Translations under genes and position numbers: made by a program
The notes under the pieces: model-generated
What the model was told of the DNA's origin: nothing
Seen by the model: the letters and a program-made list of their open reading frames with translations, nothing else
Databases searched by the model: none
Virus record (IMG/VR): IMGVR_UViG_3300028859_000009
Span: 62,001 to 126,000 of that record
Origin: a virus
Direction: 5' to 3' (one strand)
Length of the DNA stretch: 64,000 nucleotides
Part shown: in pieces, positions 27,552 to 51,059 of the stretch
Layout: each line of letters opens with the position of its first letter
Position numbering within the stretch: position 1 is the first letter of the stretch

Positions 27552-27977
27552 TTAATCTTTTCTTCCTGTTACATATCTTTCTTTTCTTGTTTTGTTTATA
27601 TTTGAAAAAGTGATATATTTATCATCTATCTTAATATCAAAGCTATAAAGATTTGTATCATTACTTAATAATTGTTTTATTTTTTCTATTTTGATATTAG
27701 ACCTTGCTTCAAAATCAGTAATAACAAATTTCAATCCATCATTTTCATCTAATTTATTTTTAAATTCTGGTAATCTTAAAAATTCCATTATTCTTTCTAC
27801 TAATTTGCCAAATTTATCTGATCCTTTTCTATATTCACCAAAATATTGTTTGAAATTTTTTATTCGTGGTTCTTCACCATAATTTGTTCCAGCAAAAGGA
27901 ATTTTACCTTCTGGGCCTGCAACAGATGGAAAATAAAAATTATGATCTGTTGATTTAGTATTAAAGCTTGTTATCAT
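27552..27977 (-). CDS. hypothetical protein (141 aa)
   Basis: The product starts MITSFNTKSTDHNFYFPSVAGPEGKIPFAG and is soluble. It overlaps the upstream gene by one base and precedes the membrane protein by five bases, so the three form a transcript. No family is recognised. Confidence 0.6.
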   Translation of the reverse strand: MITSFNTKSTDHNFYFPSVAGPEGKIPFAGTNYGEEPRIKNFKQYFGEYRKGSDKFGKLVERIMEFLRLPEFKNKLDENDGLKFVITDFEARSNIKIEKIKQLLSNDTNLYSFDIKIDDKYITFSNINKTRKERYVTGRKD

Positions 27978-28309
27978 TATATGTTGAATTTTTTTGAATT
28001 TTTTAATATTTTCATATTGTTGATAAGTTTACTAAAATTAGTTACACTTGCGTACATAACATAATTAATTATTTGAAATCTTGCATCAGAATCATTTAAA
28101 ATGTTACACAGTTCATTATATTCTACAAAATTATCATTTGTAATTGACATACTAATTTTAAAAGATAGACAAAATCTGACATTTGTGTCAATTTTAAAAT
28201 TTATAATTCCTAATTTATCATCCCACAATTCTAAAAACAAAGATTTCACTTTATTTACAAATATATCGTAATCTTCTTGATTATTTTCATTAAATTTCTG
28301 TATTATCAT
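27977..28309 (-). CDS. cassette protein with N- and C-terminal signature peptides
   Basis: The 110-residue product begins MIIQKFNENN (F-N-E site) and ends KNSKKFNI, carrying both terminal signatures that recur in the 42-47 kb cassettes. The middle is unrecognised. It sits between a hypothetical gene and the amidoligase-like gene in one operon. Confidence 0.6.
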   Translation of the reverse strand: MIIQKFNENNQEDYDIFVNKVKSLFLELWDDKLGIINFKIDTNVRFCLSFKISMSITNDNFVEYNELCNILNDSDARFQIINYVMYASVTNFSKLINNMKILKNSKKFNI

Positions 28310-31541: not shown

Positions 31542-32429
31542 TTAGATAGAATTATTGTTTTTGTTTATAATATATTCATACTCACACATTCTATTTTTAG
31601 ATGAATTTATAGTTCTTTTTGTAATACATAAATTATCAAAATGTGCAATATCATCTATTGAAATATTATTCATAAATTCATAAAATATAGATGTTTTATG
31701 ATCTATTGTTGGATATAACGAATGTCCAGGGTTAAGATTTAAATTTTCTTTAATATATTCATTATCATAATAATCATAACCATTCCAATCATAAAAAATA
31801 ACACTCTTTAATGTTCTTGTTATTTTTCTGACTTTAAACTGATATATCTCAAAATCACTTTTATAAAAATCTGGAACCTTTCTACCATTTAATACTAGTG
31901 ATTCTTCATATTTTGTAGACTGGCTATAGTGATCAACACCATATTTTTCTCTACACGTATTTTTCATTTTTTCCTTCACTATATAACTTTTTGCTGCATT
32001 ATCAAATCCAAAATTATTTATATTAGACTCAACAATTTTTAATCTTATATCTTTAGACTGAGATGGATAATCAACACCATATTTTTTATTGTTTGTAGAT
32101 ATAATTTTATTCTTTATTTCATCAATTTGAAACACATTATCACGACCATATCTTTCATTATTAGTTTTTATATTTTTAAATTGAGCACAAGTTGGTGAAC
32201 AACAATAAACATTGTTGTTATTATATGATAACAAATATTGCCTATATGGTTTAAATGATTGTTTATGACAAATATCACACTCAACAAGAATATTAGTATG
32301 TGAGCCAACAGGTAAATTAAAAACATCAATAACATATTCTTCTCCTTTTTTTATATCATTGACACATTTTTTAAAGAATTTATAATTAACAGAATTTATT
32401 TTTATTTTAACATTTTTTGAAATTATCAT
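31542..32429 (-). CDS. HNH-type homing endonuclease with zinc finger and KYG repeats
   Basis: The 295-residue paralogue has a zinc module CDICHKQ ... CSPTCAQ, about four KYG-type repeats (RYGRDN, KYGVDY, NFGFDN, KYGVDH) and the C-terminal WNGYDYYDNEYI, YPTIDHKTSIFYEF and FDNLCITKRTINSSK. It overlaps an upstream RHH gene by 23 bases, as does the copy at 22.4 kb. It sits between a methyltransferase and a SLOG gene and could have mobilised either. Confidence 0.82.
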   Translation of the reverse strand: MIISKNVKIKINSVNYKFFKKCVNDIKKGEEYVIDVFNLPVGSHTNILVECDICHKQSFKPYRQYLLSYNNNNVYCCSPTCAQFKNIKTNNERYGRDNVFQIDEIKNKIISTNNKKYGVDYPSQSKDIRLKIVESNINNFGFDNAAKSYIVKEKMKNTCREKYGVDHYSQSTKYEESLVLNGRKVPDFYKSDFEIYQFKVRKITRTLKSVIFYDWNGYDYYDNEYIKENLNLNPGHSLYPTIDHKTSIFYEFMNNISIDDIAHFDNLCITKRTINSSKNRMCEYEYIINKNNNSI

Positions 32430-32848: not shown

Positions 32849-33381
32849 TTCATATATGCTTCAGTGGGGGTGCCACAGGATCAGATCTTTTGTGGAGTTT
32901 TGAATCTATAAAAAAAGGATATAAAGTCATAGATTTTTCTTTTGAAGGCCACAACACAAAATCAGAGAATAAATATATTCTATCTAGCAATCAGCTAAAA
33001 GAAGGCTATGAGCACATTAAAATAGCAAATAACACATTAAATAGAAATGTAACTAACGTATCATCTTATGTAAAAAATCTAATATCTAGAGATTGGTTTC
33101 AAGTAAAAAAATCTGATACAATTTTTGCCATTGGTATTTTACAGACAGAAAATACAGTTCTCGGTGGTACAGGCTGGGCTGTACAATTAGCCATAGATAA
33201 TCACAAACCAATATATTTATTTGAGCAAAATATAAATCAATGGCATTATTTTGATTATGAATCAAACGCATTTGAAATTTATGAAGGAATTCCAAAATTA
33301 ACTGAAAAGTTTGCAGGAATTGGTACAAGAAATATAAATCAAAATGGAATAGATGCTATTATAAGTTTATTTAAAGATTAA
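32845..33381 (+). CDS. SLOG-family (YpsA/DprA-like) nucleotide-binding protein
   Basis: The Rossmann-like fold of SLOG proteins is shown by CFSGGATGSD (residues 5-14) and VLGGTGWAVQLAIDNHKPIYLFEQ with W ... FAGIGTRNINQNGIDAI near the end. SLOG domains bind nucleotide-derived ligands; phage members are of unknown role. It is translated from the strong Shine-Dalgarno site and coupled to the RHH gene. The 3' end overlaps a convergent gene by 11 bases. Confidence 0.72.
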   Translation: MIHICFSGGATGSDLLWSFESIKKGYKVIDFSFEGHNTKSENKYILSSNQLKEGYEHIKIANNTLNRNVTNVSSYVKNLISRDWFQVKKSDTIFAIGILQTENTVLGGTGWAVQLAIDNHKPIYLFEQNINQWHYFDYESNAFEIYEGIPKLTEKFAGIGTRNINQNGIDAIISLFKD

Positions 33382-33709
33382 ATTTATCAGATAAATTTTT
33401 AATTTTCTGTTCTTTAATTTCATCAGGTGTAGCTAATATTAAATCTGCATCAGAAAACGGCATAGTATAATCAAAGTTACTAGTATAATATTTTTTTATA
33501 TAATCTAATATTTCAATAGGAATATTTTCATATTTTACATTATAATATTTAAAATTATCATGTTTATCATAATCTATGGATTCAATTTGTCCGATATTAT
33601 TCTCAAAAAAGTTTTTCAAATCTTTTGAATATGTCAATTCATGACATCTTACATAATCACCTACGTTAAATCCAGAATTTAAATCTTCATAATGTTTTAA
33701 AAATTTCAT
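33371..33709 (-). CDS. cassette protein with N- and C-terminal signature peptides
   Basis: The ATG at 33709 gives MKFLKHYEDLNSGFNVGDYVRCHE and an end of KIKNLSDKFNL. The body GDYVRC ... FFENNIGQIESID ... VKYENIP is homologous in pattern to the proteins at 43.7 and 44.4 kb. It is thus a dispersed member of that small family. A TTATATATAA box lies upstream, overlapping the terminator at 33738-33768. Confidence 0.65.
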   Translation of the reverse strand: MKFLKHYEDLNSGFNVGDYVRCHELTYSKDLKNFFENNIGQIESIDYDKHDNFKYYNVKYENIPIEILDYIKKYYTSNFDYTMPFSDADLILATPDEIKEQKIKNLSDKFNL

Positions 33710-36191: not shown

Positions 36192-37163
36192 TCAAAATGT
36201 AAATATTGAATTTAATACTGACAATCTTTTATTAATTGTAGGCAATCCAATTGGTTCGAGGAATCTGTTAATTATACTCAACATTGTTACGTCAAATTGT
36301 TCGTCGTAATCAATTTTAACTCCTTCTTTTTCACATATTTCATATGGATATAATCCCCTTTGATATGCGAATATTGGATTTTTAATATGATTACAATAAA
36401 AATATTTTATACGCCCTCCTCTTATATTATCATATTTAGTTTTATATTCTGAATTCTTATTTAATAAATAATTATGTAATGCTGCGGCTTTAACTGCAAA
36501 GTGAGCACCTTTAACACACACTACATCTGTAACATCATCAATAACTTTAATAGGATAATTACTACAACTTGATGTCATACTAATATCTTCAATATTCGCC
36601 ATCATAAACTGTTTTTTCAAATCTTTAACAATAAGTAAAATCTTTCTAATATCCAAATTATTAGGATTAGCAAATATATATCGTAAGAACTCATAAATAT
36701 TCTCTCTCACAAATGGAGGAGTTGATGATTTAACAATTTCGACACCTTTTGGATAAAAATAACTCATACTTTCATAAAACAGTCCATCTTCCCAAGCAAC
36801 GTTATTAATATAATGTTTCTTTTGAATATGTAAAGCTGATCTATTAATTGTTTCAAGTTCAAAATTATGAATATTTTTAACTCCGTATTTAGCAGCATAT
36901 TCATCTAACCAACCATTATATAATTTCTCAATAAATACTCTATCAATATGTAAAATAAAATCTAATTCATCTCCAGTATAACCAACAGATTTTATCATAG
37001 GAGCGAACGAAATATAAAGTGAGTTATGTACTAATATATTATTAGCAATAAATGTATGAGTTTCATCATCAACTTCGATATCATAAACATATTCATCTTC
37101 AAATTCACCTATCATTTCACATGATTCTATATCATCAAAATAGTATTCTATATTATTTATCAT
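36192..37163 (-). CDS. 43: split intein C-fragment plus C-terminal part of DNA polymerase B
   Basis: Residues 1-47 form an intein C-fragment with block F (YVYDIEVDDETHTFIANNILVHN) ending in the His46-Asn47 splice dyad. Ser48 starts the C-extein SLYISFAPM, which completes polymerase motif C when joined to YGDTD of the upstream piece. The remainder is the thumb region, with the KKHYINNVAWEDG (KKxY-like) motif and KGVEIVKSSTPPF. The intein block F and the extein are both intact, so trans-splicing should restore a normal YGDTDSLYISF site. It is separated from the N-piece by a homing endonuclease and two other genes. Confidence 0.92.
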   Translation of the reverse strand: MINNIEYYFDDIESCEMIGEFEDEYVYDIEVDDETHTFIANNILVHNSLYISFAPMIKSVGYTGDELDFILHIDRVFIEKLYNGWLDEYAAKYGVKNIHNFELETINRSALHIQKKHYINNVAWEDGLFYESMSYFYPKGVEIVKSSTPPFVRENIYEFLRYIFANPNNLDIRKILLIVKDLKKQFMMANIEDISMTSSCSNYPIKVIDDVTDVVCVKGAHFAVKAAALHNYLLNKNSEYKTKYDNIRGGRIKYFYCNHIKNPIFAYQRGLYPYEICEKEGVKIDYDEQFDVTMLSIINRFLEPIGLPTINKRLSVLNSIFTF

Positions 37164-37168
37164 TTTAA

Positions 37169-37435
37169 TTATTTTATTATTTCAAATTTTATTATTTCAA
37201 ATTCATTTATATTAATATCATCTGTTGATGGTCTATCATAGAACATACTAAATTGAGCATGTACTGAATCACTATAAGCCAATTTAGCTTCTTCTTCAGT
37301 TTCTACAAACCATATAGGAGAATATTTATTAGTTGTAAATAAATATTCAGTACCAAATTCACTATCATCACTATAAATAACATTAAATCTTATAATTTTA
37401 TTAGTTTCTTTGTGTATAAATGTCCAAACTTCCAT
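37169..37435 (-). CDS. small conserved phage protein (cargo in split locus)
   Basis: The 88-residue product (MEVWTFIHKETNKIIRFNV ... YLFTTNKYSPIWFVETEEEAKLA) resembles a small protein I recall from other large phages. It overlaps the upstream gene by 35 bases and ends five bases before the intein C-fragment. It has no link to polymerase or intein motifs and so is cargo within the interrupted gene. Confidence 0.6.
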   Translation of the reverse strand: MEVWTFIHKETNKIIRFNVIYSDDSEFGTEYLFTTNKYSPIWFVETEEEAKLAYSDSVHAQFSMFYDRPSTDDININEFEIIKFEIIK

Positions 37436-38057
37436 ATAATTCTTTTATTTTTTCTATTAATTCATCATCAAATTTTAGATTTTCATATTTCAATTTTTCT
37501 AAAATTTCAAAAATATAATTATTAGATAATTTTTTAGAAATCACTCCTGATAAATTATTTGATGTAAATGAATATAAATCATCATCCAGCAATAAATTAT
37601 ACCAAATATTATAAGCATCTAAAGATGAAAACTTATTTGAAGTTATAAAACCGAAATCTAAAATCACCAATTTATATAATTTATATCCTAATGTGTATCC
37701 TTTTAAATTTACTGGCATTCCTTTTTCAAAATCTATTAAATTTAATCTTGTTTCATCAACAGAAAAATCGAATTCCAAGTCTAATGATATTTTATTTTCT
37801 ATCTTTAAATTTAATTTTTTTAAAATCTCAATAAACCAAAAATCTGGTTTAATATAAATTCCATATGAATGCTTTTTATAATAAAAATTACTTACATCAT
37901 ATTTAGATATTTCATTTTTAATATCAATATAATCGTCAGATATTATAACTCCTTCTTTTGACTTTTTTTTAATATATGTATCATCATTTTTTATAATATC
38001 ATTCAATTTAGACTTATTAAATTTTTCATAAGTTTTTATAAAAATTGATTTTTTCAT
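37401..38057 (-). CDS. hypothetical protein (218 aa), cargo in split locus
   Basis: The product begins MKKSIFIKTYEKFNKSKL, a weaker version of the recurrent N-terminal motif, and is otherwise unrecognised. It overlaps the homing endonuclease gene by four bases (ATGA). It may have been carried in with the endonuclease or inserted afterwards. Confidence 0.55.
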   Translation of the reverse strand: MKKSIFIKTYEKFNKSKLNDIIKNDDTYIKKKSKEGVIISDDYIDIKNEISKYDVSNFYYKKHSYGIYIKPDFWFIEILKKLNLKIENKISLDLEFDFSVDETRLNLIDFEKGMPVNLKGYTLGYKLYKLVILDFGFITSNKFSSLDAYNIWYNLLLDDDLYSFTSNNLSGVISKKLSNNYIFEILEKLKYENLKFDDELIEKIKELYGSLDIYTQRN

Positions 38058-39217
38058 TTTTCAAACTCCTTAATTTTTTCAATTATTTCTTCAATAATTT
38101 TAAATATACCTTTTTCTTTTAAATCTTTTTCCCATATTATAATAACATCTCTGACTTTTGTTTTTAAAAATTTTATTTTATCGTAATCTTTTTTCCAAAT
38201 ATCTTTAGCTAAATAAGGTTTATTATGATTTTTTAAAAATGATATAGGAATATCATTTTCAAAAAATATTTTAGGATTAGCGTGCCATTTATCACCATTA
38301 AATTCTATAACCAAATTCAACTCTTTAATAAATAAATCTGTCATATATGTTATATTATTTACAGTATCAACAAAATAATATTCCTTATTATTAGTTGCAT
38401 AAAATAATGTATACTCATTTAACTTATCTAACTTATTTTTTAATTCATCAAATATTTTTTGAGAAATATCTGAATATCCAAATTCAAATGATCTTTTATT
38501 TACAAAATTTTCAAATTTTTCTATCCCATTCATTTCACCATATTGTGAAATAAAATATTCTAAAGAACAAGTATATCTTTGTCTATCGATATAATTATTC
38601 CAAATTTCTAAACCTTTTTCTTCGCCGTTTCTTTCAATGATATTTTTTAATGTAATTGACCTTGAACGATTATATTCATCGAATTTTTTCTCATCCCAAC
38701 CATATTTTTCTTTCTTATATTCAAATGTGTTTGTTATTGCTTGTTTTTCACAATAGTTTTTCCATTTTTCCTTACCATTTTTTTCACCATGTTTGCTGAT
38801 AAGTGTTTTTTCTGTTATTGAATAATTTTGTTTTTTCCATTGCTCAGAAATATCATTAGGTATATCAAACGCAAAGCATGTTATATCACATATTCTATTA
38901 AAAACTCTACCTTTATTTAAATTGTTATATTCTGGATATTTTTCTATTAAACAATCTTCACAAACTGATAGAGTATAATCTTTTTCTAATAATGTTTTTT
39001 TAGTTAAGTATGACTTTTTATTAGGATAAATATTATAATTTTTATCTATACTAAATATCGAATCATAATAATAAATAGGACCATCACAATATAAGCATTT
39101 TCTATGATTTGGCAATTCTTTAATCAAAACATAGTTATAAAGTTCCTTAGTTTTATTTTTATTAAACCAAGTAATCCAAGTTTTATTATATTCATAATTA
39201 TTTTTTCTTTTTGTCAT
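38054..39217 (-). CDS. Vsr-like homing endonuclease of a fractured-gene split intein
   Basis: The 387-residue product has an N-terminal zinc module (CLYC ... CEDC), three repeats of the form GEKNGKEKWKNYCEKQ, and a C-terminal nuclease domain with TDLFIKELNLVIEFNGDKWH and W-KDYDKIKFLKTKVRDVIIIWEKDL. This fits the Vsr/PD-(D/E)xK-type endonucleases reported for fractured genes with split inteins (Dassa and colleagues, 2009). The gene lies 39 bases after the intein N-fragment and presumably invades intein-free polymerase genes. Confidence 0.85.
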   Translation of the reverse strand: MTKRKNNYEYNKTWITWFNKNKTKELYNYVLIKELPNHRKCLYCDGPIYYYDSIFSIDKNYNIYPNKKSYLTKKTLLEKDYTLSVCEDCLIEKYPEYNNLNKGRVFNRICDITCFAFDIPNDISEQWKKQNYSITEKTLISKHGEKNGKEKWKNYCEKQAITNTFEYKKEKYGWDEKKFDEYNRSRSITLKNIIERNGEEKGLEIWNNYIDRQRYTCSLEYFISQYGEMNGIEKFENFVNKRSFEFGYSDISQKIFDELKNKLDKLNEYTLFYATNNKEYYFVDTVNNITYMTDLFIKELNLVIEFNGDKWHANPKIFFENDIPISFLKNHNKPYLAKDIWKKDYDKIKFLKTKVRDVIIIWEKDLKEKGIFKIIEEIIEKIKEFEK

Positions 39218-39256
39218 ATGGCAATACTTTTATCTCTATATATAAATATTAAAATA

Positions 39257-40147
39257 TCATATTTTTCTAACTGAAAGTATTTTATCTGTTTTCAATATTT
39301 CTGATGGTTTAACTTCTATTTTTTTATTATCTCTAAAAACTATCATAGAATGATCATTAGTTACTATAATTTCCTCACCAGATTTAGTTTTTAATTTCCA
39401 TTTAGGTTTAGAAACTTTATGCCTAATAATTCTCTTAACTGGCGCATAATAAAGTTTTTTATCTTCATTCCAATTTAAAATAAGTTCTTTGCAATTAACT
39501 GACACATGTCCATTTAATGTTACACCAGCAGATCCATATTGAATATTTTTATTATATAAATCTTCTATTGTAAAATATCCATCATTAGTATTTATAATGG
39601 TCTTACAAAAAACGGAATCAGTATCACCATAAATTGTTATTGGAACATCTTTTGGTATAGGTTTTACATTTGAACAATCACAAACAAATCTACTATATAA
39701 TACATTATATCCATTTAATTCTTTTTTATCTTCAACTAAATCACCACGATAATAATTTAATTTTTCTAACATATTATCTACTGATGTATATGTATAATGT
39801 ATATTTTCACCATTTCTATCTAATAAATAAAATTTACCTTCTTTTTCTGCAATATATTCAAGTCCGAGTAATTGATGTGTTTTTGTGTCTAAATGCCATT
39901 CTTTATAAAAATATGTTTCAATCTTTTTAAGCATATAATTTATAACATCACGTCCTTGAGCAGTTATTGCATTTGCAATATGAGAATTTGATAATACAAA
40001 TTTTGGATGTGCAAATGCACCATAAGTTCCATTAATTACAAGTTTTAATGCAAGTTGCATAGCTTTTGCTCTATCGTATTCAGCCTTAGTTTCATCAATT
40101 TTTCTTTTTACTTCTGAAATTTTATCTCTCTTTTCTTGTGCTGTCAT
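39257..40147 (-). CDS. 43: DNA polymerase B middle fragment plus split intein N-fragment
   Basis: Residues 1-177 carry polymerase motif B (LALKLVINGTYGAFAHPKF) and the first part of motif C (IYGDTD, ending at Asp177). The intein N-fragment starts at Ser178: SVFCKTIINTNDGYFTIEDL, a class of Ser1 inteins known at this motif C insertion point, followed by block B (VTNDHSMIV). The fragment has 119 intein residues. Upstream polymerase parts (exonuclease and motif A) are missing from this gene and from the window, so the ATG at 40147 starts within the fingers domain. Confidence 0.92.
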   Translation of the reverse strand: MTAQEKRDKISEVKRKIDETKAEYDRAKAMQLALKLVINGTYGAFAHPKFVLSNSHIANAITAQGRDVINYMLKKIETYFYKEWHLDTKTHQLLGLEYIAEKEGKFYLLDRNGENIHYTYTSVDNMLEKLNYYRGDLVEDKKELNGYNVLYSRFVCDCSNVKPIPKDVPITIYGDTDSVFCKTIINTNDGYFTIEDLYNKNIQYGSAGVTLNGHVSVNCKELILNWNEDKKLYYAPVKRIIRHKVSKPKWKLKTKSGEEIIVTNDHSMIVFRDNKKIEVKPSEILKTDKILSVRKI

Positions 40148-40380: not shown

Positions 40381-42084
40381 ATGATAAAAGAAAAAGAGTT
40401 AAATATACAAATGACAAGTAGAAATATAACATATTATAAAAATTTAGGATATAATGTTATAAATGGTAATACTTGTAATATAAAAATTGAAGATGTAAAT
40501 AAAAATTCAAAACTTAAAATTACAGCGATTTGTGAGAAATGTGATTCTGAAAATTATATTTCAATCGAAAAATATTATAAAAATTTCAATAATCATAATT
40601 ATTATGGTTGTAAAAAATGTTCCAAGGAAAAATTCAAACTAACAAGTAATATATTATTTGGAGTTGATAATCCTATGAAAAATAAAGAAATAAAAGAAAA
40701 AGCAGAAAAAACTAATTTAAAAAAATACGGGTATAAAACTTCATTATTAAATAATGAAGTAAAAGAAAAAATAAAAAAAACAAATTTAGAAAAATATGGT
40801 ACGGAAATTCCTTTAGAAAATAAAGAAATTAGAGATAAAATTAAAAATACTAATTTAGAAAGATATGGAGTAGAATATCCTGCTCAAAATAAAAATATAG
40901 AAAATAAAATTAAAAATACCAATTTAAAAAAATATGGTTTTGAACATCCAGCTCAAAATGAAAAAATAAAACAAAAAATAAAAGACACAAATTTAGAAAA
41001 ATATGGTAACATTTCACCTTTTAAAAGTGATATAATAAAATCTAAATTCGCTGAAAAATATAAAGATAAATATAAAGAAATAAATATTATTGAAGTTGAA
41101 GATAATCATTTAATTATTAAATGTGATAAATGTGATCATTCATATAAAATTTCAAAAACTATGTTTAATCATAAAATGTTAGAACATATTATTTTATGTC
41201 CTAAATGTAATCCGTCATCTAATTCATTCATGGAATCTAAAATTATAGAATTCATATCAGAAAATTATAGTAAATCTATAATATTAAATAGTAAATCTAT
41301 AATATCTCCATTAGAATTAGATATTTATTTACCAGATTTAAAATTAGCATTTGAATATAATGGTATATATTGGCATAATGAAGTAAATAAAGATAATAAT
41401 TATCATTTAAATAAAACTGAAGAATGTGAAAAATTAGGAATACAATTAATTCATATATGGGAAGACGAATGGCTATATAAGAGAGAGATAATAAAATCTA
41501 TAATATTAAATAAATTAGGAAAAATAAAAAATAAAATATATGCTATAGACTGTGAAATAAAAAAAATTGATAATAATAATTTAGCTAGAGAATTTCTTAA
41601 TAATAATAATATTCAAGGATTTATAGGTTCAAAAATTAAAATTGGATTATTTTATGAAAAAAAATTAGTAAGTCTTATGACATTTGATAATAGACATATT
41701 ATAAATGAAGGAGAATATAATTTATTAAGGTTTTGTAATATATTAAATACTGATATTATAGAAGGAGAATATCAATTATTTAATTATTTTATTAAAAATT
41801 ATAATTCTAATAAAATAACAGTGTACTCAGATAGATCTATTAGTCAAGGTAAATTATATGAAAAATTAGGATTTAAATATGAAGGAAAAACTGATCCTAA
41901 TTATTTTTATGTCATAAATAGAAATAGATATAATAAATTTAACTTCAGAAAAAATAAATTAGTTATGGATGGATTTGATATTAATAAAACAGAGCATGAA
42001 ATAATGTTAGAAAGAAAGATATATAGAATATATGATTCTGGTAATCTAAAATTTGTATATTACAATAATATTGATATTAAATAA
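40381..42084 (+). CDS. Hef-like homing endonuclease with zinc modules and KYG repeats
   Basis: The 567-residue product combines two CxxC modules (CEKCDSE ... CKKCSKE, later CDKCDHS ... CPKCNPS), about six KYG repeats (FGVDNP, KYGYKT, KYGTEI, RYGVEY, KYGFEH, KYGNIS) and a C-terminal nuclease region with LELDIYLPDLKLAFEYNGIYWH and IWEDEW. The latter fits Vsr-like/PD-(D/E)xK Hef enzymes that replace mob genes in T4-type phages. The KYG array is shared with the three HNH paralogues. It is divergent from the split polymerase and probably acts as its mobile neighbour. Confidence 0.85.
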   Translation: MIKEKELNIQMTSRNITYYKNLGYNVINGNTCNIKIEDVNKNSKLKITAICEKCDSENYISIEKYYKNFNNHNYYGCKKCSKEKFKLTSNILFGVDNPMKNKEIKEKAEKTNLKKYGYKTSLLNNEVKEKIKKTNLEKYGTEIPLENKEIRDKIKNTNLERYGVEYPAQNKNIENKIKNTNLKKYGFEHPAQNEKIKQKIKDTNLEKYGNISPFKSDIIKSKFAEKYKDKYKEINIIEVEDNHLIIKCDKCDHSYKISKTMFNHKMLEHIILCPKCNPSSNSFMESKIIEFISENYSKSIILNSKSIISPLELDIYLPDLKLAFEYNGIYWHNEVNKDNNYHLNKTEECEKLGIQLIHIWEDEWLYKREIIKSIILNKLGKIKNKIYAIDCEIKKIDNNNLAREFLNNNNIQGFIGSKIKIGLFYEKKLVSLMTFDNRHIINEGEYNLLRFCNILNTDIIEGEYQLFNYFIKNYNSNKITVYSDRSISQGKLYEKLGFKYEGKTDPNYFYVINRNRYNKFNFRKNKLVMDGFDINKTEHEIMLERKIYRIYDSGNLKFVYYNNIDIK

Positions 42085-42465: not shown

Positions 42466-42500
42466 AAAAAGAGATGATATATTTTATATCATCTCTTTTT
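42466..42500. terminator. bidirectional terminator
   Basis: AAAAAGAGATGATATA and TATATCATCTCTTTTT form a 16-bp stem between convergent genes. Confidence 0.9.
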
Positions 42501-43165
42501 TATATATTAAATTTATTTGTACTATTTGATAATTCTACTAATCTTGAAATTTTTTCATCATCTAAAGTTAATGTTTTAAGATAGTCATTAAATTTTTCAA
42601 TAAATTCTTCATTTATATCATACCATCTTTTATCTAATTTATCTAAATAATCATTTCTATTATAATTATTCTCGTTATATTGTTCATCATCTCCATAGTA
42701 GCAATCAAATTTAATACTATCTAAATCAAAATCTTTCATTATTGAATACACAGTTTTTCCTAATTTTTCTGGTATATGTTGTTCGATTTTTAAATATTTA
42801 AATAACATAATTAATTTCATATGAATATTTGCATTATTATATTTTCTACCAAATCCTCTTGAATTTGAAGAGCTAGCAAATCCGTTTTCAAAATATTGAA
42901 TATGACCTCCATTACATACTTGTCTATTATAATTACATAGAAGAATACAAAAATAAGGTAGTATACCATATTTTTCTTTCACAATATCTAAAAATTTTTC
43001 ATAATCAATATTTGATGTAGATTCTATATAAGAAACGTCAGTTATAGCGTCAAATACATTTCCTTCTGAAAAATCTTTATTTTTTAATAATAATGTTTTT
43101 AATTCTCCTTCATTTTTAAATAAAATAGGAAAATTAGTTCCTTCATACATTTTCAAGTGTTTCAT
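42500..43165 (-). CDS. DUF4375-like protein with signature termini
   Basis: The N-terminus is MKHLKMYEGTNFP and the end is NSTNKFNI, both recurrent signatures. The body contains YNRQVCNGGHIQYFENGFASS, the NGGxxQ[YF]xxN motif typical of DUF4375 (DMP19-like) proteins. Function of that family is unknown. It is the last of five tandem cassettes on the minus strand. Confidence 0.62.
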   Translation of the reverse strand: MKHLKMYEGTNFPILFKNEGELKTLLLKNKDFSEGNVFDAITDVSYIESTSNIDYEKFLDIVKEKYGILPYFCILLCNYNRQVCNGGHIQYFENGFASSSNSRGFGRKYNNANIHMKLIMLFKYLKIEQHIPEKLGKTVYSIMKDFDLDSIKFDCYYGDDEQYNENNYNRNDYLDKLDKRWYDINEEFIEKFNDYLKTLTLDDEKISRLVELSNSTNKFNI

Positions 43166-43166
43166 A

Positions 43167-43676
43167 TTATAAATTAAATTTTGTTACTGAATCATCAAAT
43201 TCTTTTTTCTTCAAATAATCTTTATATTGTTCTGGATATTTAGATATTATTCTATTGATATCGTACGTATTTAAAAAACCTAATGTTTCATGTCCTTGTT
43301 TATTTTTACAATATAGTGATGCTCCAGCTTCTAATAATATTCTCATTGATGCTAGGTCACTATTTATAGCAGCTCTCATTATTGGAGTATCACCGTTATC
43401 ATTTTTAGCTTCAATATCAGCACCAACCTCTATAAGTTTATAAATTAAATCAAATGAACATATGGTAGCAGCATATGTCAAAGGAGTCTGTCCATTTTTA
43501 GCTTTAATATTTGGATATGCTCCCTCATCTAATAAATTTATCATTTTTATTGATGATTCTTTGCTTCTATTATCAATAATATTTTCATCAATAATTTTGA
43601 TCAATTCGTTAGTAGCTTCAATCTTTATAATAAAGTCATCTGAATAATCTTCAAATTTTTTAAAATTAGTTATCAT
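43167..43676 (-). CDS. ankyrin-repeat protein with signature termini
   Basis: The N-terminus MITNFKKFEDYSDD and the end DDSVTKFNL are the cassette signatures. Residues about 60-150 form ankyrin repeats: GAYPNIKAKNGQTPLTYAA, EVGADIEAKNDNGDTPIMRAA and EAGASLYCKNKQGHETLGF. Ankyrin repeats bind proteins, so it may target a host protein. If the N-terminus is a packaging signal, it would be injected with DNA. Confidence 0.78.
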   Translation of the reverse strand: MITNFKKFEDYSDDFIIKIEATNELIKIIDENIIDNRSKESSIKMINLLDEGAYPNIKAKNGQTPLTYAATICSFDLIYKLIEVGADIEAKNDNGDTPIMRAAINSDLASMRILLEAGASLYCKNKQGHETLGFLNTYDINRIISKYPEQYKDYLKKKEFDDSVTKFNL

Positions 43677-43990
43677 AAATTAAATTTATTTGATTGTATT
43701 ATATATTCTAATTCATCTTTATTTTTTGATATATATTTTATTTCATCTAATGACATATTTCTTTCATTGTGTGAGAAATATTTTTCTAAATTTTTTGGTA
43801 TTTCTTCATAATGTATCACATATGGCTGCATGAATTCTGTGTCATATCTAATATATTCACCTATATTATTTGATGTAAAAGTAATAATTTCAGAATCCGA
43901 ATATGACTCTGATTCATTACACACTACCAAATCTCCAATTTCTGGCTCATCTTTACAAATTTCTTCAAATAATTTAAAATTAGTTATCAT
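43673..43990 (-). CDS. cassette protein, GDxVxC family, copy A
   Basis: MITNFKLFEEICKDEPEIGDLVVCNES at the start and ELEYIIQSNKFNL at the end. The sequence is a clear paralogue of the gene at 44350-44664. It overlaps the ankyrin gene with an ATGA junction. The GDLVVC ... FTSNNIGEYIRYD core suggests a small beta-barrel; function is unknown. Confidence 0.65.
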   Translation of the reverse strand: MITNFKLFEEICKDEPEIGDLVVCNESESYSDSEIITFTSNNIGEYIRYDTEFMQPYVIHYEEIPKNLEKYFSHNERNMSLDEIKYISKNKDELEYIIQSNKFNL

Positions 43991-44014
43991 AAATTAAATT
44001 TTTTTATATTATTA

Positions 44015-44353
44015 TTAAAATTCAATTTCATCATAATAATCTTGAATTTCTTCTGGTGTGCATACTAATTTACCCATAAATATATTATTATCATAGCTTT
44101 CTGATGTTGGGTACGGATACCATGTATAAGAATTTTCATACTCTGGATGTTTTACTATTGTAATTGTTTCTAAATCTGTGAAATTATCTCTAGCTGTAAA
44201 AACTTTATTCTTACGAAGTCTAATCCAATCTTTAATTATAATCTCTGGCATTCCAATTTTTTTCAGAGATATATAAAAATCTGGCATTTTTACAGGCATA
44301 TTCCAAAGTAATTTTTTATCAGAATCTTCAAATTTTTTAAAATTAGTTATCAT
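44015..44353 (-). CDS. cassette protein (112 aa)
   Basis: It starts MITNFKKFEDSDKK and ends YYDEIEF, so only the N-terminal signature is present. The body has NKVFTARDNFTDLETITIVKHPEYENSYTWYPYP. It overlaps the next cassette by four bases. No family is recognised. Confidence 0.6.
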   Translation of the reverse strand: MITNFKKFEDSDKKLLWNMPVKMPDFYISLKKIGMPEIIIKDWIRLRKNKVFTARDNFTDLETITIVKHPEYENSYTWYPYPTSESYDNNIFMGKLVCTPEEIQDYYDEIEF

Positions 44354-44664
44354 AAATTAAATTTATTTGATTGTATTATATATTCTAATTCATCTTTATT
44401 TTTAGACCAATATTTTATTTCATCAATTGACATATTTCTTTCATCATCACCTGAAAAATAACTTTTCATATTTTTTGGTGTATAATCATATTTTATTATA
44501 TAAGGATAAGCCTCTCCGTCATCATATCTAATAAATTTACCGATATTAGTTGATGTAAATATAGTATTAATATCAGCATAGTCTACTTCTTCACATATAA
44601 CAAAATCTCCAATTTCTATTGATTTTTCGTTTATTGATTCAAATTTTTTAAAATTAGTTATCAT
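44350..44664 (-). CDS. cassette protein, GDxVxC family, copy B
   Basis: It starts MITNFKKFESINEKSIEIGDFVICEE and ends ELEYIIQSNKFNL. It matches copy A at 43673-43990 over nearly its whole length, with the last 50 bases almost identical, evidence of recent duplication or recombination. An ATATATAA box lies upstream; this is the first gene of the cassette operon. Confidence 0.65.
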   Translation of the reverse strand: MITNFKKFESINEKSIEIGDFVICEEVDYADINTIFTSTNIGKFIRYDDGEAYPYIIKYDYTPKNMKSYFSGDDERNMSIDEIKYWSKNKDELEYIIQSNKFNL

Positions 44665-44715
44665 ATTATTATATATAAAATATTTTTTAGAAAATAAATA
44701 TTAATATATATAATT

Positions 44716-45441
44716 ATGGAAAATTCTAATTTAACAAAGCAAGCAAAATCTGATATATTTTCTGAATTATATCCAATTATAAATTTTTATATAAATAAAG
44801 GTGCAACTCCGCAGTCATTAAAAAAATATTATAGAAATTCTAAAATGTTTAATGATATTTTAGATGATATAAAAAATAAAGGTTCTAATCTTATAACAGA
44901 TGATATTGAATATAAAAATTTAGTAAAAACTGTATTAAATGATATTTTAGATGATTTAATAGCAAAGCAAAAAGATGATGAATATAAAAACAAACAAATG
45001 AAGCACTTAAAGGAATTTAATTCATATGAATATAAAAATGAATCATTTGGATTGATTACATTATTCGCAATTGGTTTCTTTTTATATAAATTTTTAAAAA
45101 GTATACTTACTAATTATATGAGAAATAGAAATACAAAATTATTATTAACAATACTAAGTAAACTAAATAAATTAAAAGAAAAAGATAAAATACAAGTTAT
45201 TGATCTTTCTAATGTATATTATATAAGATTAAATTTTGATAATGATGAAGGTGGTATTAAAATGTCTAATTTTGATATTGAAGAAAGTGGCATCAAAATA
45301 TCAAAATTTAATGTTAATGAATGTGATATTAGAGTATTAAAAAATGAAAAAACTTTAGAAATATCAGAAGGTACAAATAAAATAAAAATAAATTTGACTA
45401 ATAATGAATATAATGAATTCTTAAAATTAATACAAAAATAA
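44716..45441 (+). CDS. membrane protein with internal signature motif, possible fusion
   Basis: The 241-residue frame has at residue 95 an internal ATG (44998) opening MKHLKEFNSYEYKNES, a copy of the N-terminal signature, followed by one membrane helix (LITLFAIGFFLYKFLKSIL). The frame may be a fusion of a 94-residue protein with a signature-bearing membrane protein, or have an alternative internal start. The plus-strand gene has an ATATATAA box and is the first of six. Confidence 0.6.
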   Translation: MENSNLTKQAKSDIFSELYPIINFYINKGATPQSLKKYYRNSKMFNDILDDIKNKGSNLITDDIEYKNLVKTVLNDILDDLIAKQKDDEYKNKQMKHLKEFNSYEYKNESFGLITLFAIGFFLYKFLKSILTNYMRNRNTKLLLTILSKLNKLKEKDKIQVIDLSNVYYIRLNFDNDEGGIKMSNFDIEESGIKISKFNVNECDIRVLKNEKTLEISEGTNKIKINLTNNEYNEFLKLIQK

Positions 45442-45455
45442 ATAAACAATATAAA

Positions 45456-45992
45456 ATGATAAATGAAATAAACAATATTAAAAAATTCACAGAATGGTTT
45501 CCGTTATATGAATTTCAAATACCTAATGTAAAATTAGATGAGTTCTTCTATAACATAAAATTATCAACTTCTAAATACACTAAAATTCTTGTTGATTATT
45601 TTAAAACATATGAACAATATATTGATTTAATGGATAAAAAGAAGCATCAATATAAGATTAATGATATGTCAGGCGATATTTTAGGTACTGAAAAAGTAGT
45701 TTTCAAATGTAGCATTTTTGATAAAGAAGATATTGAAAATATCAGAGAAAATTTAGTAACTTTTGCATTATCAGAATTTTATTCAGATATTCCTGATTCA
45801 TTAAATGTTTTTGGTATAATGATGAAACCTTTATCGTTTATTGATAAAGAAAAAGTTAAATATTCATTTCAGCAAACTATAACTTTTGATACAACAATAA
45901 ATGTTATATCAACATTAGGTAATATGGTATATGATAATGAATTTAATGGATATTATATTTGGACTGATAAAAAAGATAAATTAACTGAATGA
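45456..45992 (+). CDS. hypothetical protein (178 aa)
   Basis: The product begins MINEINNIKKFTEWFPLYE, partly like the signature motif, and is otherwise soluble and unrecognised. Its end overlaps the next gene by four bases. Confidence 0.55.
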   Translation: MINEINNIKKFTEWFPLYEFQIPNVKLDEFFYNIKLSTSKYTKILVDYFKTYEQYIDLMDKKKHQYKINDMSGDILGTEKVVFKCSIFDKEDIENIRENLVTFALSEFYSDIPDSLNVFGIMMKPLSFIDKEKVKYSFQQTITFDTTINVISTLGNMVYDNEFNGYYIWTDKKDKLTE

Positions 45993-46528
45993 TAATTAAA
46001 AGATTTTTTCAATTAAATGAAAATAATAGCGTTGATAATGATATAAAAAAGGTATTATCAAATAAAGATGATTTATATGCAAAAATTCTAAATTATATGA
46101 AATCACATTTAGATTATTATGATTTTGAAATTGAACTTGATCATCTTGGTGATGTTTGGAATCCTAATTTTTTAAGTGGTGGAGAATTAAATATTGAAAT
46201 TTTCGATAAAAATGAATCTAATGGTGATAATTATGAATTTAATGGTGAGGAATACCAAGCATTACTAGACGAAACAAATTTAACTAAGTCAGAAGTAACA
46301 AATATAATTAATGATTACAATGATTTATTATCATCTTTGACTGATTACTTAAAACAAATCAAAGTATTAAAAACAAATGAATATGCTGATTTTGCATATT
46401 TTGAAGATGATAATACACTTAATATATTGTATCTTGATGAAAAAGAAAGGGGAGATTATTATATTTTATCAAATAACGAATATAATGATTTCTTATTATA
46501 TATAGAATCAAAAAAATTTAATATTTAA
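45989..46528 (+). CDS. cassette protein with signature termini
   Basis: Begins MIIKRFFQLNENNSVDN (L-N-E site) and ends YIESKKFNI. The middle is acidic (ELDHLGDVWNPNFLSGGELNIEIFDKNE) and near its end has YYILSNNEYNDFLLYIE, resembling the end of the preceding membrane protein (LTNNEYNEFLKLIQK). No function is assigned. Confidence 0.6.
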   Translation: MIIKRFFQLNENNSVDNDIKKVLSNKDDLYAKILNYMKSHLDYYDFEIELDHLGDVWNPNFLSGGELNIEIFDKNESNGDNYEFNGEEYQALLDETNLTKSEVTNIINDYNDLLSSLTDYLKQIKVLKTNEYADFAYFEDDNTLNILYLDEKERGDYYILSNNEYNDFLLYIESKKFNI

Positions 46529-46530
46529 TT

Positions 46531-46785
46531 ATGATTGAAAAAGATATGCAAATCAAAGAGTTATACGATTTAAAACATATAAATGATAAAATAGAAACTG
46601 GATTTGATTATGAAGAAGAATTAATGACAAAATCATTATCAAATTTAATGTTTCAAAATGAAACTACTAGCTCATTTTTAGATAAGTTAAAAAAACTATT
46701 AATATATACTATAGAATCTAACTTAATTATACGAAATTTCTTTAATCCGACAATTTCAAAATATTACAATAAACATAATAATTAA
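46531..46785 (+). CDS. small hypothetical protein (84 aa)
   Basis: The product is helical and charged at its N-terminus with a more hydrophobic segment (LLIYTIESNLIIRNFF). It starts three bases after the preceding stop and so is part of the same operon. No family is recognised. Confidence 0.5.
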   Translation: MIEKDMQIKELYDLKHINDKIETGFDYEEELMTKSLSNLMFQNETTSSFLDKLKKLLIYTIESNLIIRNFFNPTISKYYNKHNN

Positions 46786-46790
46786 ATAAT

Positions 46791-47066
46791 ATGAAAATTA
46801 AAAAATTTGAAAAATACGAGCATAACATTGAACCAATAATATATGATCCAGAATATAAATTGATGAAAATTGATGAAAATGGAGACTCAAATGAAATTGA
46901 TATCAATGTAAATCCATTTGATTTAGATGAGATTGTTAGTTGTTATTTAGATATGAAAGGATATGATAATAATTTGTGGATAAAAAAAATAACAGAAGAA
47001 ATAGTAGACTTAAATATGATACCTGAAATAAAAATTCATCTATCTGCTAAAAAATTCAATATATAA
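46791..47066 (+). CDS. cassette protein with signature termini (91 aa)
   Basis: It begins MKIKKFEKYEHN and ends LSAKKFNI, so both signatures are present around a short acidic body. It is the last of the plus-strand cassette genes before the HAD-like gene. Function is unknown. Confidence 0.6.
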   Translation: MKIKKFEKYEHNIEPIIYDPEYKLMKIDENGDSNEIDINVNPFDLDEIVSCYLDMKGYDNNLWIKKITEEIVDLNMIPEIKIHLSAKKFNI

Positions 47067-47067
47067 T

Positions 47068-47098
47068 TTTTTTATTCAAAATAAAATTTGTATATTTG
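47068..47098 (+). promoter_or_regulatory. candidate Bacteroidota-type promoter
   Basis: TTTT at 47068-47071 and TATATTTG at 47091-47098 are 19 bp apart, 35 bases before the ATG at 47133. Confidence 0.5.
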
Positions 47099-47132
47099 TA
47101 TTCAAAATAATAACTCATTTAAAAAGTATATA

Positions 47133-47990
47133 ATGAATACAGAAGTAGAAAATTCAAAACATCAAAAATATTCTAAGATTAACGAAAAAATATTCAAATA
47201 TTATTCATTTGATATTGATGATAATTTGTTATACACCAATACAAAAATTATAATGGAGCATTTAGTGAATAATAAATGGATTGATGAAGAAGTAGATACA
47301 GCTATATTTTCTAAAATTAGAGGTACTGAAGGCTGGAGGTATAAACCAGGTGATGAATCATTTTCGAACTTTAGAGATTATGGGCATCTTAAAGATGAAA
47401 CTTTCATTATTGATTTCAAATATGCTGTTATAAATAAGAAATTTGGACCATCTTGGACAAAGTTTCTTGAATGTTTAATAAATGGTAATATATTTTCTAT
47501 TATAACATCAAGAGGTCACTCACCAAAAAACATAAGAAAAGCTTTATATTGGCTTATATATGAATATGGATTAGACAATTTTAAAGATTTACAAATAAAA
47601 AATATAAACAAAAATATTAATTTTAAAGATCAAATGATAAAAAATCTTTTAAAATATCATAAAATTTTTAAAACTGAATCTCACCAAGTAATTGATTATT
47701 ATATTGAATTGTGTCCAATTTATACTATATCATCTAATTATTTTATAGAAAAATATGGTATAATGACAGCAGAAGAATCAAAGAAAAATGCTCTACAAGA
47801 TTTTAATGAAATAGTTAATAAATATGCAACTAAATTAGGTATAAATGTTAAATATGGATTTTCTGATGATGATCCTAAATTTGTTAAGGCTGCAATGGAT
47901 CAATTTTTAGAATTAAAATTATCAACTAAAAATGTAACATATTCTGTATTTGATACAGGTGGAGATAAAAAAATAAAAAAGGTATTGTAA
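47133..47990 (+). CDS. HAD-like phosphatase family protein
   Basis: The ATG at 47133 gives 285 residues; an earlier TTG reading starts inside the promoter. HAD motifs are FDIDDNLLYTNT (motif I, DxD), SIITSRGHSPKNI (motif II) and YGFSDDDPKFV (motif IV). HAD enzymes usually remove phosphate from small molecules or nucleic acid ends, so a role comparable to polynucleotide phosphatase or metabolite phosphatase is possible. A terminator follows. Confidence 0.7.
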   Translation: MNTEVENSKHQKYSKINEKIFKYYSFDIDDNLLYTNTKIIMEHLVNNKWIDEEVDTAIFSKIRGTEGWRYKPGDESFSNFRDYGHLKDETFIIDFKYAVINKKFGPSWTKFLECLINGNIFSIITSRGHSPKNIRKALYWLIYEYGLDNFKDLQIKNINKNINFKDQMIKNLLKYHKIFKTESHQVIDYYIELCPIYTISSNYFIEKYGIMTAEESKKNALQDFNEIVNKYATKLGINVKYGFSDDDPKFVKAAMDQFLELKLSTKNVTYSVFDTGGDKKIKKVL

Positions 47991-48004
47991 TAATTAATAT
48001 TCAC

Positions 48005-48037
48005 AAAAAAACCAACATTATTAATGTTGGTTTTTTT
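48005..48037. terminator. bidirectional terminator
   Basis: AAAAAAACCAACATTA pairs with TAATGTTGGTTTTTTT between convergent genes. Confidence 0.88.
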
Positions 48038-48054
48038 ATAAACTAATATTAAAA

Positions 48055-48195
48055 TTAGTTTTTACTATAATGTTCTCCCATTGTGATCAATTGAAAGCAC
48101 TCAGTAGGCGTGATACCATTTTTTTCTGCATATTCTGCAATATTTGATCCAGTTGAAACATACTCATTGTAGAAAGAAATTAATTGTTTGTTCAT
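48055..48195 (-). CDS. 46-aa small helical protein
   Basis: The product MNKQLISFYNEYVSTGSNI continues AEYAEKNGITPTECFQLITMG, a helix-turn-helix-like pattern. It has its own strong promoter (48236-48265, minus strand) and a terminator. Short DNA- or protein-binding phage factors look like this. The function is unknown. Confidence 0.6.
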   Translation of the reverse strand: MNKQLISFYNEYVSTGSNIAEYAEKNGITPTECFQLITMGEHYSKN

Positions 48196-48235
48196 TTGTT
48201 TAATTTTTAAATTTGTTTATAATTTTGATTGAATA

Positions 48236-48265
48236 CAAAGATATAAAAAAATCTGAACTACACAA
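48236..48265 (-). promoter_or_regulatory. Bacteroidota-type promoter
   Basis: On the minus strand TTG (48263-48265) and TATCTTTG (48236-48243) are 19 bp apart, upstream of the 46-residue gene. It is embedded within the terminator hairpin of the preceding operon. Confidence 0.72.
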
Positions 48266-48282
48266 GTAATTCAGATTTTTTT
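48245..48282 (-). terminator. terminator of the IF-3/PepF operon
   Basis: AAAAAAATCTGAA and TTCAGATTTTTTT form a 13-bp stem just downstream of the 82-residue gene, overlapping a promoter for the next gene. Confidence 0.8.
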
Positions 48283-48284
48283 TG

Positions 48285-48533
48285 TTAAATGTTATGTTCT
48301 ATCTCTAATAATTTATTTTTTCTATATTCTATAATTCCAATAAACCAATTTTTATATGATAGTCCATTAACATCTTGATATATTGTGAAAGAAATCTGTC
48401 TACCATTATCATCTTTTATAATTATACGTTCACTATATGAACTATCTACAATAGAATATATTTTTCCTACTGTTACTGATGAAATACCATAATCATTATC
48501 ATGACAATATAATTTATCTCCAATTTTTATCAT
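48285..48533 (-). CDS. small beta-barrel-like protein (82 aa)
   Basis: The product (IKIGDKLYCHDNDYG ... VTVGKIYSIVDSS ... IIIKDDNGRQISF) has a KOW/SH3-like repeat pattern and ends YRKNKLLEIEHNI, a variant of the C-terminal tag. It overlaps pepF by four bases and closes the operon. Function is unknown. Confidence 0.62.
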   Translation of the reverse strand: MIKIGDKLYCHDNDYGISSVTVGKIYSIVDSSYSERIIIKDDNGRQISFTIYQDVNGLSYKNWFIGIIEYRKNKLLEIEHNI

Positions 48534-50329: not shown

Positions 50330-50332
50330 TTT

Positions 50333-51052
50333 TTATTTTATAATTGTTTGTATTTTAGCTGTTTGTATTTGATTTTGTAACCATTTATTTACTATATTCC
50401 GATATTTTATATTTTCTTTGAGTAATTCGATATCTTTTTTTGCTTCTTCGATTGCATCAGAATATTTGTTTTTATTAGTATTATATAAAAGCATAAGATC
50501 ATCATATAAGTCTATTTGTTGATGATCAGTATTATCTTTTTCAAATTTTAATGATTGATTAAGACATGATTCTATAGTATCATTATAAGTATACCATTTT
50601 TTTGATTTTATCCAATTTTTTGTATTATCATCTAATTGATTTGGTATTAATTCAATTTCTTGCATATTCGTTAAATCTATTAATTTTTTATTATTATCTT
50701 TTAACCATTTAGCATATTTTTCCATACTATTGACATTTTTTAAAACATCAGATATTTTAAGTCCAATTCCTAAATCATCAATTCCTAAATAGATTCTCAT
50801 AAATGTTAATGCTCCAGGATGTTCTGTTTCATTATCTTTCATAACGTTATAACAACCAGCAGGAACAACCCATTCATCAGATGGTAAACTTGAATAATGT
50901 GTAATAAAAATTTCTGCTTTACCTTCTTCAATTAATTCCTCAACTAAATTGGCATATTCTATTGATGTATGTCTAATAATTGATAATGATAAACCCTGTT
51001 CACTTTTTTTGGTTATTTTAATAATTGAATTGAGCATTTCTATCTTTTCCAT
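50333..51052 (-). CDS. hypothetical protein between infC and pepF
   Basis: The 239-residue protein has a helical N-terminus (SIIKITKKSEQGLSLSIIRHTSIEYANLVEELIEEGKAEIF), which looks like a winged-helix arrangement, and a coiled-coil C-terminus (DAIEEAKKDIELLKENI). No family is recognised. Close spacing (seven and three bases) places it in one operon with IF-3 and PepF. Confidence 0.6.
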   Translation of the reverse strand: MEKIEMLNSIIKITKKSEQGLSLSIIRHTSIEYANLVEELIEEGKAEIFITHYSSLPSDEWVVPAGCYNVMKDNETEHPGALTFMRIYLGIDDLGIGLKISDVLKNVNSMEKYAKWLKDNNKKLIDLTNMQEIELIPNQLDDNTKNWIKSKKWYTYNDTIESCLNQSLKFEKDNTDHQQIDLYDDLMLLYNTNKNKYSDAIEEAKKDIELLKENIKYRNIVNKWLQNQIQTAKIQTIIK

Positions 51053-51059
51053 AAATAAT

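What the first reader, a model, noticed from the sequence alone, without database searches (positions are those of the whole stretch)
36192..40147. Naturally split intein in a DNA polymerase, with Vsr-like endonuclease and two cargo genes between the halves
The upstream piece ends YGDTD and then SVFCKTII (intein Ser1) through block B; the downstream piece starts with intein block F ending in HN followed by SLYISF. Trans-splicing would restore YGDTDSLYISF exactly. Between the halves lie a Vsr-like homing endonuclease (38054-39217) and two unrelated genes (37401-38057 and 37169-37435). Dassa and colleagues (2009) reported fractured genes with split inteins and Vsr-like endonucleases; the extra cargo genes are the unusual part here.
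Basis: partly seen in the sequence, partly recalled or inferred. Interest (0 to 1): 0.85.

Follow-up and report, generated by a model that had tools for sequence, protein, structure and literature searches.

The report
Phage DNA polymerase with split intein
A huge-phage replicative DNA polymerase is made from three separate genes, two of which must be stitched together at the catalytic site by a naturally split intein that travels with a homing endonuclease and here carries two extra genes; this is a variant of an arrangement already known from a few phages.

Summary
The finding is real. Window 36192-40147 (minus strand) encodes PolB palm + intein N-half (39257-40147), a Vsr/EDxHD-like endonuclease (38054-39217), two extra ORFs, then intein C-half + rest of PolB (36192-37163). 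Close relatives lacking the element read straight through YGDTD|SLYISF, so the splice product is known. Intein catalytic residues are intact and under purifying selection. The arrangement is not new: Aeromonas phage Aes123, Tenacibaculum phage PTm1, Campylobacter phage CP21 and Lak phages have it, and the Aes and CP21 inteins splice in vitro. Two relatives show an identity plateau covering exactly IntN-endonuclease-IntC, the mark of homing. Across about 30 alleles the same site is empty, holds a contiguous mini-intein, or holds a split intein with no endonuclease or with one of three endonuclease types. The two extra genes are absent from all close split relatives, so they are a private insertion; Lak phages carry a different extra gene in the same slot. 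Trans-splicing and homing of this particular copy are inferred, not shown.

The parts
39617..40147 (-). PolM: middle part of family-B DNA polymerase (second finger helix, motif B KLVINGTYG, palm up to YGDTD of motif C), N-extein
   Evidence: PF00136 E 1.9e-12; 89% identical to the uninterrupted PolM-PolC of L009
39257..39616 (-). IntN: N-terminal intein half, 119 aa, Ser1, block B VTNDH (TxxH), then stop
   Evidence: PF14890 E 9e-11; phmmer to PDB 9hth 'DNA-directed DNA polymerase' intein-size chain E 1.8e-9; alignment A2
38054..39217 (-). Vsr-like (EDxHD-type) homing endonuclease, 387 aa, GEKxG-type repeats in front of the nuclease domain
   Evidence: phrog_22677 E 5e-48; Vsr by profile, Foldseek and VIA-align, Z 10.6 for Vsr and 9.8 for I-Bth0305I
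37401..38057 (-). Extra gene 1 (218 aa), ATG overlapping the endonuclease stop; N-terminus FIKTYEKFN like several other small proteins of this phage
   Evidence: Coding statistics normal; absent from all related slots; weak relative in a 425-aa protein of the 735-kb phage, E 4e-7
37169..37435 (-). Extra gene 2 (88 aa), overlaps the end of extra gene 1 by 35 bases
   Evidence: Coding statistics normal; no relative found
37023..37163 (-). IntC: C-terminal intein half, 47 aa, own ATG, block F VYDIEVDDETHTFIANNI, block G VHN
   Evidence: PF14890 model 115-155 E 9e-5; 91-94% identical in L003-L008
36192..37022 (-). PolC: rest of palm (from Ser of motif C) and thumb, C-extein
   Evidence: phrog_262 E 1.6e-30; 94% identical to L009
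35141..36124 (-). Second homing-endonuclease gene directly downstream of PolC (phrog_3339 type)
   Evidence: phrog_3339 E 5e-76; 94% identical at the same place in empty-site L011/L012, replaced by another ORF in L009/L010
40381..42084 (+). Third homing-endonuclease gene, divergent, upstream of PolM, i.e. at the older fracture between PolN and PolM
   Evidence: phrog_3339 E 3e-120; a 44% identical endonuclease also follows PolN directly at record 2886-4487

Best explanation
A fractured, mobile split-intein element sits in catalytic motif C of the phage's family-B replicative DNA polymerase. PolM-IntN and IntC-PolC are made separately. The intein halves associate and, as a Ser1/Ser+1 (cysteine-independent) class 1 intein, splice themselves out and join ...YGDTD to SLYISF..., giving a 453-aa palm-thumb chain. 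That chain then pairs without a covalent bond with PolN (exonuclease, motif A, first finger helix), which is encoded about 99 kb away on the other strand, to form the active enzyme. The Vsr-like endonuclease in the gap presumably cuts intein-free polymerase alleles, so that repair copies IntN-endonuclease-IntC as a unit. The 218-aa and 88-aa genes are later passengers inserted between the endonuclease stop and the IntC start; if homing still works they would travel with it. Shown here: anatomy, exact junction, conservation, homing tract in relatives, slot turnover. Inferred: splicing, cutting, PolN pairing and passenger behaviour of this copy.
For: Complementary intein halves with all catalytic motifs. 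Exact empty sites in 94%-identical relatives. Purifying selection on both halves: dN/dS 0.16-0.22 for IntN and 0.06-0.10 for IntC between this copy and relatives. L003 vs L005: identity jumps from 0.74 to 0.98 at the IntN start, stays high (0.89-1.00) across the endonuclease and IntC, and drops at the PolC start, a homing tract. Same order with the same endonuclease family in L003-L006, L008, PTm1, Aes123, AS-gz, CP21 and Lak. Aes and CP21 homologues trans-splice in vitro (PMC11923092; PMC12707363). Split 43A/43B of phage 25 co-purify with polymerase activity (PMC2988022), the precedent for PolN pairing. PolN fits RB69 gp43 residues 185-492 and is the only such gene in the record. Related slots run endonuclease straight into IntC with no cargo.
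Against: No splicing, cutting or polymerase assay of this copy. IntN is only 30% identical to the tested CP21 intein. PolN pairing across two distant loci is inferred from conservation in G005, G006 and the 735-kb phage. In the nearest empty relative (L009) no clear co-conversion tract is seen next to the insertion, so transfer into this phage is old or its tract was short. The origin and role of the cargo are unknown.
Confidence: 0.9

Rival explanations
1. The halves assemble without splicing: PolM-IntN and IntC-PolC pair as subunits and the intein only acts as a dimerisation domain.
For: Split polymerases without inteins work as subunits in T4-like phages, and PolN must do so here.
Against: The junction lies between D and S of motif C, inside the catalytic hairpin. 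The splicing residues Ser1, TxxH, HN and Ser+1 stay intact across divergent alleles, and homologues splice in vitro.
Confidence: 0.04
2. The locus is a decaying polymerase copy, and an intact polymerase elsewhere does the work.
For: The record is 140.7 kb and probably a fragment of a larger genome, so an unseen gene cannot be ruled out.
Against: dN/dS of exteins and intein is well below 1. No other PolB in the record. The 735-kb relative has only the same dispersed PolN and PolM-PolC, plus two weak hits.
Confidence: 0.03
3. The two extra genes are functional parts of the mobile element (for example helpers of homing), not passengers.
For: Both look like real genes and are tightly packed, with a stop-start overlap to the endonuclease. 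Lak phages retain an 80-aa ORF in the slot even where the endonuclease is gone.
Against: Absent from every other slot of this intein that was surveyed. Extra gene 1 resembles a protein encoded elsewhere in the 735-kb phage. No nuclease or recombination domain was found.
Confidence: 0.15
4. The arrangement is an assembly artefact or is repaired at RNA level by an intron.
For: Virus record from an assembly, not an isolate.
Against: Similar layouts in many independent assemblies and isolates. No Rfam intron in the window. IntN has its own stop and IntC its own ATG.
Confidence: 0.01

Closest known systems
Aeromonas phage Aes123 (JN377899) gp43A / gp43B1-IntN / VSR endonuclease / IntC-gp43B2 (PolB1 intein, 'Aes intein')
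   Same: Three-piece PolB, same motif-C site, Ser1/Ser+1 split intein, same Vsr-like endonuclease family in the same gap
   Different: All three pieces adjacent on one strand and no cargo; here PolN is about 99 kb away on the opposite strand and two extra genes fill the gap
Tenacibaculum phages PTm1/PTm5 split DNA polymerase
   Same: PolN, PolM-IntN, VSR endonuclease, IntC-PolC; IntN 54% and IntC 73% identical
   Different: Pieces close together on one strand, no cargo between endonuclease and IntC
Campylobacter phage CP21 PolB1 split intein
   Same: Same order and same endonuclease family; Ser1/Ser+1; shown to trans-splice (PMC12707363)
   Different: IntN only 30% identical; no cargo
Prevotella Lak phages (MK250015-29)
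   Same: Same split intein, same endonuclease family, and an extra gene between endonuclease and IntC
   Different: The extra ORFs are unrelated to those here; Lak-A2 lacks the endonuclease precisely while keeping the split
Pseudomonas phage MIJ3 / Cassandra split PolB intein
   Same: Split intein in PolB with an endonuclease gene between the halves (PMC6892783; Cassandra)
   Different: Endonuclease of another family (described as HNH; phrog_3339-like in Cassandra)
Fractured genes with split inteins and Vsr-like endonucleases (Dassa et al. 2009)
   Same: General arrangement: two gene halves, split intein, free-standing Vsr-like endonuclease (paper not held; from general knowledge, cited)
   Different: Extra genes in the gap and the third, distant polymerase piece

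Membership tests
Naturally split class 1 intein | Two complementary Hint-fold halves on separate genes, split at the usual endonuclease position | tested here: met
   PF14890 model 11-93 and 115-155 on the two ORFs; contiguous versions exist in L076, L079, L084, L085, L093
Naturally split class 1 intein | Residue 1 Ser/Cys/Thr, block B TxxH, block G ending in N, +1 Ser/Cys/Thr | tested here: met
   S1, VTNDH, VHN, then S in window and relatives
Naturally split class 1 intein | Protein trans-splicing | not testable with these tools
   Only homologues were assayed
Phage PolB1 split intein (Aes123/CP21 allele) | Inserted in PolB motif C at D-T-D|S with Ser1 and Ser+1 | tested here: met
   Junction fixed by the empty site in L009
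Phage PolB1 split intein (Aes123/CP21 allele) | Sequence homology to the Aes/CP21 intein | tested here: met
   PDB 9hth E 1.8e-9; CP21 IntN aligned at 30% identity; Aes123 IntN 44% identity over query residues 56-114
Vsr-like / EDxHD homing endonuclease | Vsr-type nuclease fold | tested here: met
   Vsr chains 1cw0 Z 10.6 and 1vsr Z 9.9, I-Bth0305I 3r3p Z 9.8 at rank 4 of 461 chains; independent profile hit to Vsr, E 0.04-0.06
Vsr-like / EDxHD homing endonuclease | Conserved acidic and His active-site residues | tested here: inconclusive
   D294, E305, H312 and D344 invariant in seven relatives; not mapped residue by residue onto I-Bth0305I
Vsr-like / EDxHD homing endonuclease | Cuts the element-free allele and drives copying of the element | tested here: inconclusive
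   Homing tract seen in L003/L005; cutting not assayed
Split T4-like gp43 (43A/43B) | PolB broken in the fingers between motifs A and B, parts pairing as subunits | tested here: inconclusive
   Break position met: PolN aligns to RB69 185-492 and ends shortly after; pairing not testable here, precedent

The most novel reading that the evidence does not exclude
The polymerase intein site of huge phages is a standing cargo slot. At one fixed position the intein repeatedly turns from contiguous to split and back, exchanges endonucleases of three kinds, and takes up unrelated passenger genes that spread by homing into an essential gene. Meanwhile the polymerase itself is built from polypeptides encoded at two loci about 100 kb apart.
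Probability: 0.4. Interest if true: 0.65.

Novelty: new variant of a known kind. Interest (0 to 1): 0.47.

Why it matters
An essential replication enzyme depends on protein trans-splicing at its catalytic aspartates plus assembly of a distant third subunit. The relatives give, at one site, a series of states (empty, contiguous mini-intein, split without endonuclease, split with one of three endonuclease types, split with cargo) in which the order of steps in gene fracture, and whether passengers hitchhike, can be tested directly. The alleles are also a source of new cysteine-independent split inteins for protein engineering.

Tried and rejected
Group I/II intron as the joiner: no Rfam match in the window. 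Second intact polymerase: none in the record. Relatives of the cargo: pattern scans of viral contigs found none, phage records gave only weak hits for the 218-aa protein and none for the 88-aa one, no convincing domain in Pfam, PHROGs or PADLOC. AlphaFold of the 218-aa protein was useless (pLDDT 33). Cargo insertion by microhomology: AAAATGA occurs at both ends, but in 23% GC DNA with ATGA stop-start overlaps this is weak and I do not claim it. Direction of contiguous-split changes: the tree needs 5 changes, at least 4 forced by strong branches, but is unrooted, so direction is left open.
Full report
What is there. On the minus strand from 40147 to 36192 the window carries, in order: the middle of a family-B DNA polymerase followed without a break by an intein N-half (39257-40147, 296 aa); a 387-aa Vsr-like endonuclease (38054-39217); two further ORFs of 218 aa (37401-38057) and 88 aa (37169-37435); and an intein C-half followed by the rest of the polymerase (36192-37163, 323 aa). 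Pfam Intein_splicing matches the two halves complementarily (model 11-93 and 115-155 of 155) and PF00136 matches the first ORF. PHROGs calls both ORFs DNA polymerase.

The junction is exact. Relatives L009-L014 and L017 from viral contigs have PolM and PolC as one ORF with ...ITIYGDTDSLYISF... and the two query parts abut to the base. L009 is 89% (PolM) and 94% (PolC) identical to the window.

The intein looks functional. Ser1, block B VTNDH, block F and the final HN are kept across divergent alleles. dN/dS between this copy and its relatives is 0.16-0.22 for IntN and 0.06-0.10 for IntC, in the same low range as the polymerase parts. The best PDB hit of IntN is 9hth, a 173-residue chain named DNA-directed DNA polymerase (E 1.8e-9). 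I take this to be the Aes intein structure because of its length and name, which I did not verify further. The Aes intein (PMC11923092) and the CP21 intein (PMC12707363) have been shown to trans-splice.

The endonuclease is Vsr-like. A profile of 11 relatives has Vsr chains as its three best PDB hits (E 0.04-0.06). The AlphaFold model (mean pLDDT 77) hits Vsr first in Foldseek. VIA-align puts Vsr (Z 10.6 and 9.9) and the EDxHD homing endonuclease I-Bth0305I (Z 9.8, 98 residues, 2.6 A) among the top four.

The polymerase is in three pieces. PF00136 and phrog_262 find one more piece in the 140,730-base record, at 1339-2823 on the plus strand: 494 aa with exonuclease motifs and motif A, ending in the fingers. 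It aligns to RB69 gp43 residues 185-492. It lies about 99 kb from PolM, on the other strand. In relatives G005 and G006 the same two parts are about 87 kb apart on opposite strands, and in the 735-kb phage LR756501 they are about 116 kb apart if that genome is circular. In PTm1, LR756500 and Lak the parts are close together on one strand. The two-locus layout is therefore a conserved feature of this clade, not an assembly accident. Homing-endonuclease genes flank both sides of this older break: one directly follows PolN and one faces PolM.

Mobility. Between L003 and L005, polymerase DNA upstream of the intein is 74-91% identical. Identity rises to 0.95-1.00 at the IntN start, stays high (0.89-1.00) through the endonuclease and IntC, and falls to about 0.86 where PolC begins. 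Synonymous differences tell the same story (0.04 in the intein against 0.37-0.47 in the exteins). This is the footprint of recent transfer of IntN-endonuclease-IntC as a unit. For the window itself intein pS (0.30-0.54) tends to be below extein pS (0.51-0.66) against the same relatives, consistent with older transfer.

Slot survey. A scan with the IntN alignment gave 33 loci, which I classified by what lies between the halves. Contiguous mini-inteins without endonuclease: L076, L079, L084, L085, L093. Split, no endonuclease, gap of roughly 80-260 bases with a stop and a new ATG: L073, L074, L077. Split with the Vsr-like enzyme: many. Split with a phrog_681/559-type endonuclease: L007/L065, L066, L069. 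Split with a phrog_3339-type endonuclease: L029/L087 and phage Cassandra. A tree of the intein needs five changes between contiguous and split, at least four of them on strongly supported branches, so interconversion is repeated. Lak-A1 and Lak-A2 are 96-99% identical around the slot, but Lak-A2 lacks precisely the endonuclease and has a clearly different IntN.

Cargo. In the closest split relatives (L003-L006, L008) the endonuclease stop overlaps the IntC start, with no room for cargo. The two extra genes occur in none of the other loci held and once each in this record. Their codon statistics are normal. The 218-aa protein is distantly related (34% over 118 aa) to part of a 425-aa protein elsewhere in the 735-kb phage, so it is probably a resident phage accessory gene that landed in the slot. 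Lak phages carry a different ORF of 80-101 aa in the same place, and L033/L070 has about 370 bases there with no long ORF. Extra genes in this slot are thus uncommon but recur.

What is known. The arrangement without cargo is in GenBank for Aes123 and related phages as gp43A, gp43B1 with N-intein, VSR endonuclease, gp43B2 with C-intein, and for PTm1 as 'intein-containing split DNA polymerase precursor' plus 'VSR endonuclease'. MIJ3 was published with a split PolB intein, similar to a mini-intein in PolB of Salicola phage SCTP-2 (PMC6892783). Subunit-type splitting of gp43 is known (PMC2988022), and endonuclease interchange around essential phage genes has been discussed as HEG-islands (PMC10448857). 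The window adds the cargo and the distant third piece.

Limits. No wet-lab test. The record is probably a fragment. Cargo searches used short peptide patterns, tblastn and HMM libraries and could miss remote relatives. The tree is unrooted.

Noticed in passing
42500-53324, 37401-38057, 27977-28309, 33371-33709; L026 4489-4815: Many small, otherwise unrelated ORFs share an N-terminal tag (MITNFKxFE, IKTYEKFN and similar) and ten of 133 end in [KN][FY]N[LIV] against 0.06 expected from shuffles. Could be a targeting peptide, a duplicated family, or shared junction DNA.
   Followed up: partly
L054 5707-8760 and 13288-14244 (contig of L036): The same contig also has a ribonucleotide reductase gene fractured by a split intein with an HNH endonuclease between the halves, and a RecA-like ORF that runs into an intein-like N-half by eye.
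   Followed up: partly
L097 versus L098 (Lak-A2 versus Lak-A1): Near-identical Lak phages differ by precise absence of the endonuclease, and their IntN sequences differ strongly while the flanks are 96-99% identical.
   Followed up: partly
51060-51596: Phage gene for translation initiation factor IF-3, both domains.
   Followed up: no
57142-57813 and 60136-61338: Isochorismatase/nicotinamidase-like and nicotinate phosphoribosyltransferase genes, a possible NAD salvage pair.
   Followed up: no
48530-50329: Oligopeptidase F-like M3 metallopeptidase in a phage.
   Followed up: no
22407-23267, 24297-25388, 31542-32429: Further endonuclease-like ORFs related to the repeat part of the 40381-42084 enzyme; the region is rich in homing-endonuclease genes.
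   Followed up: no
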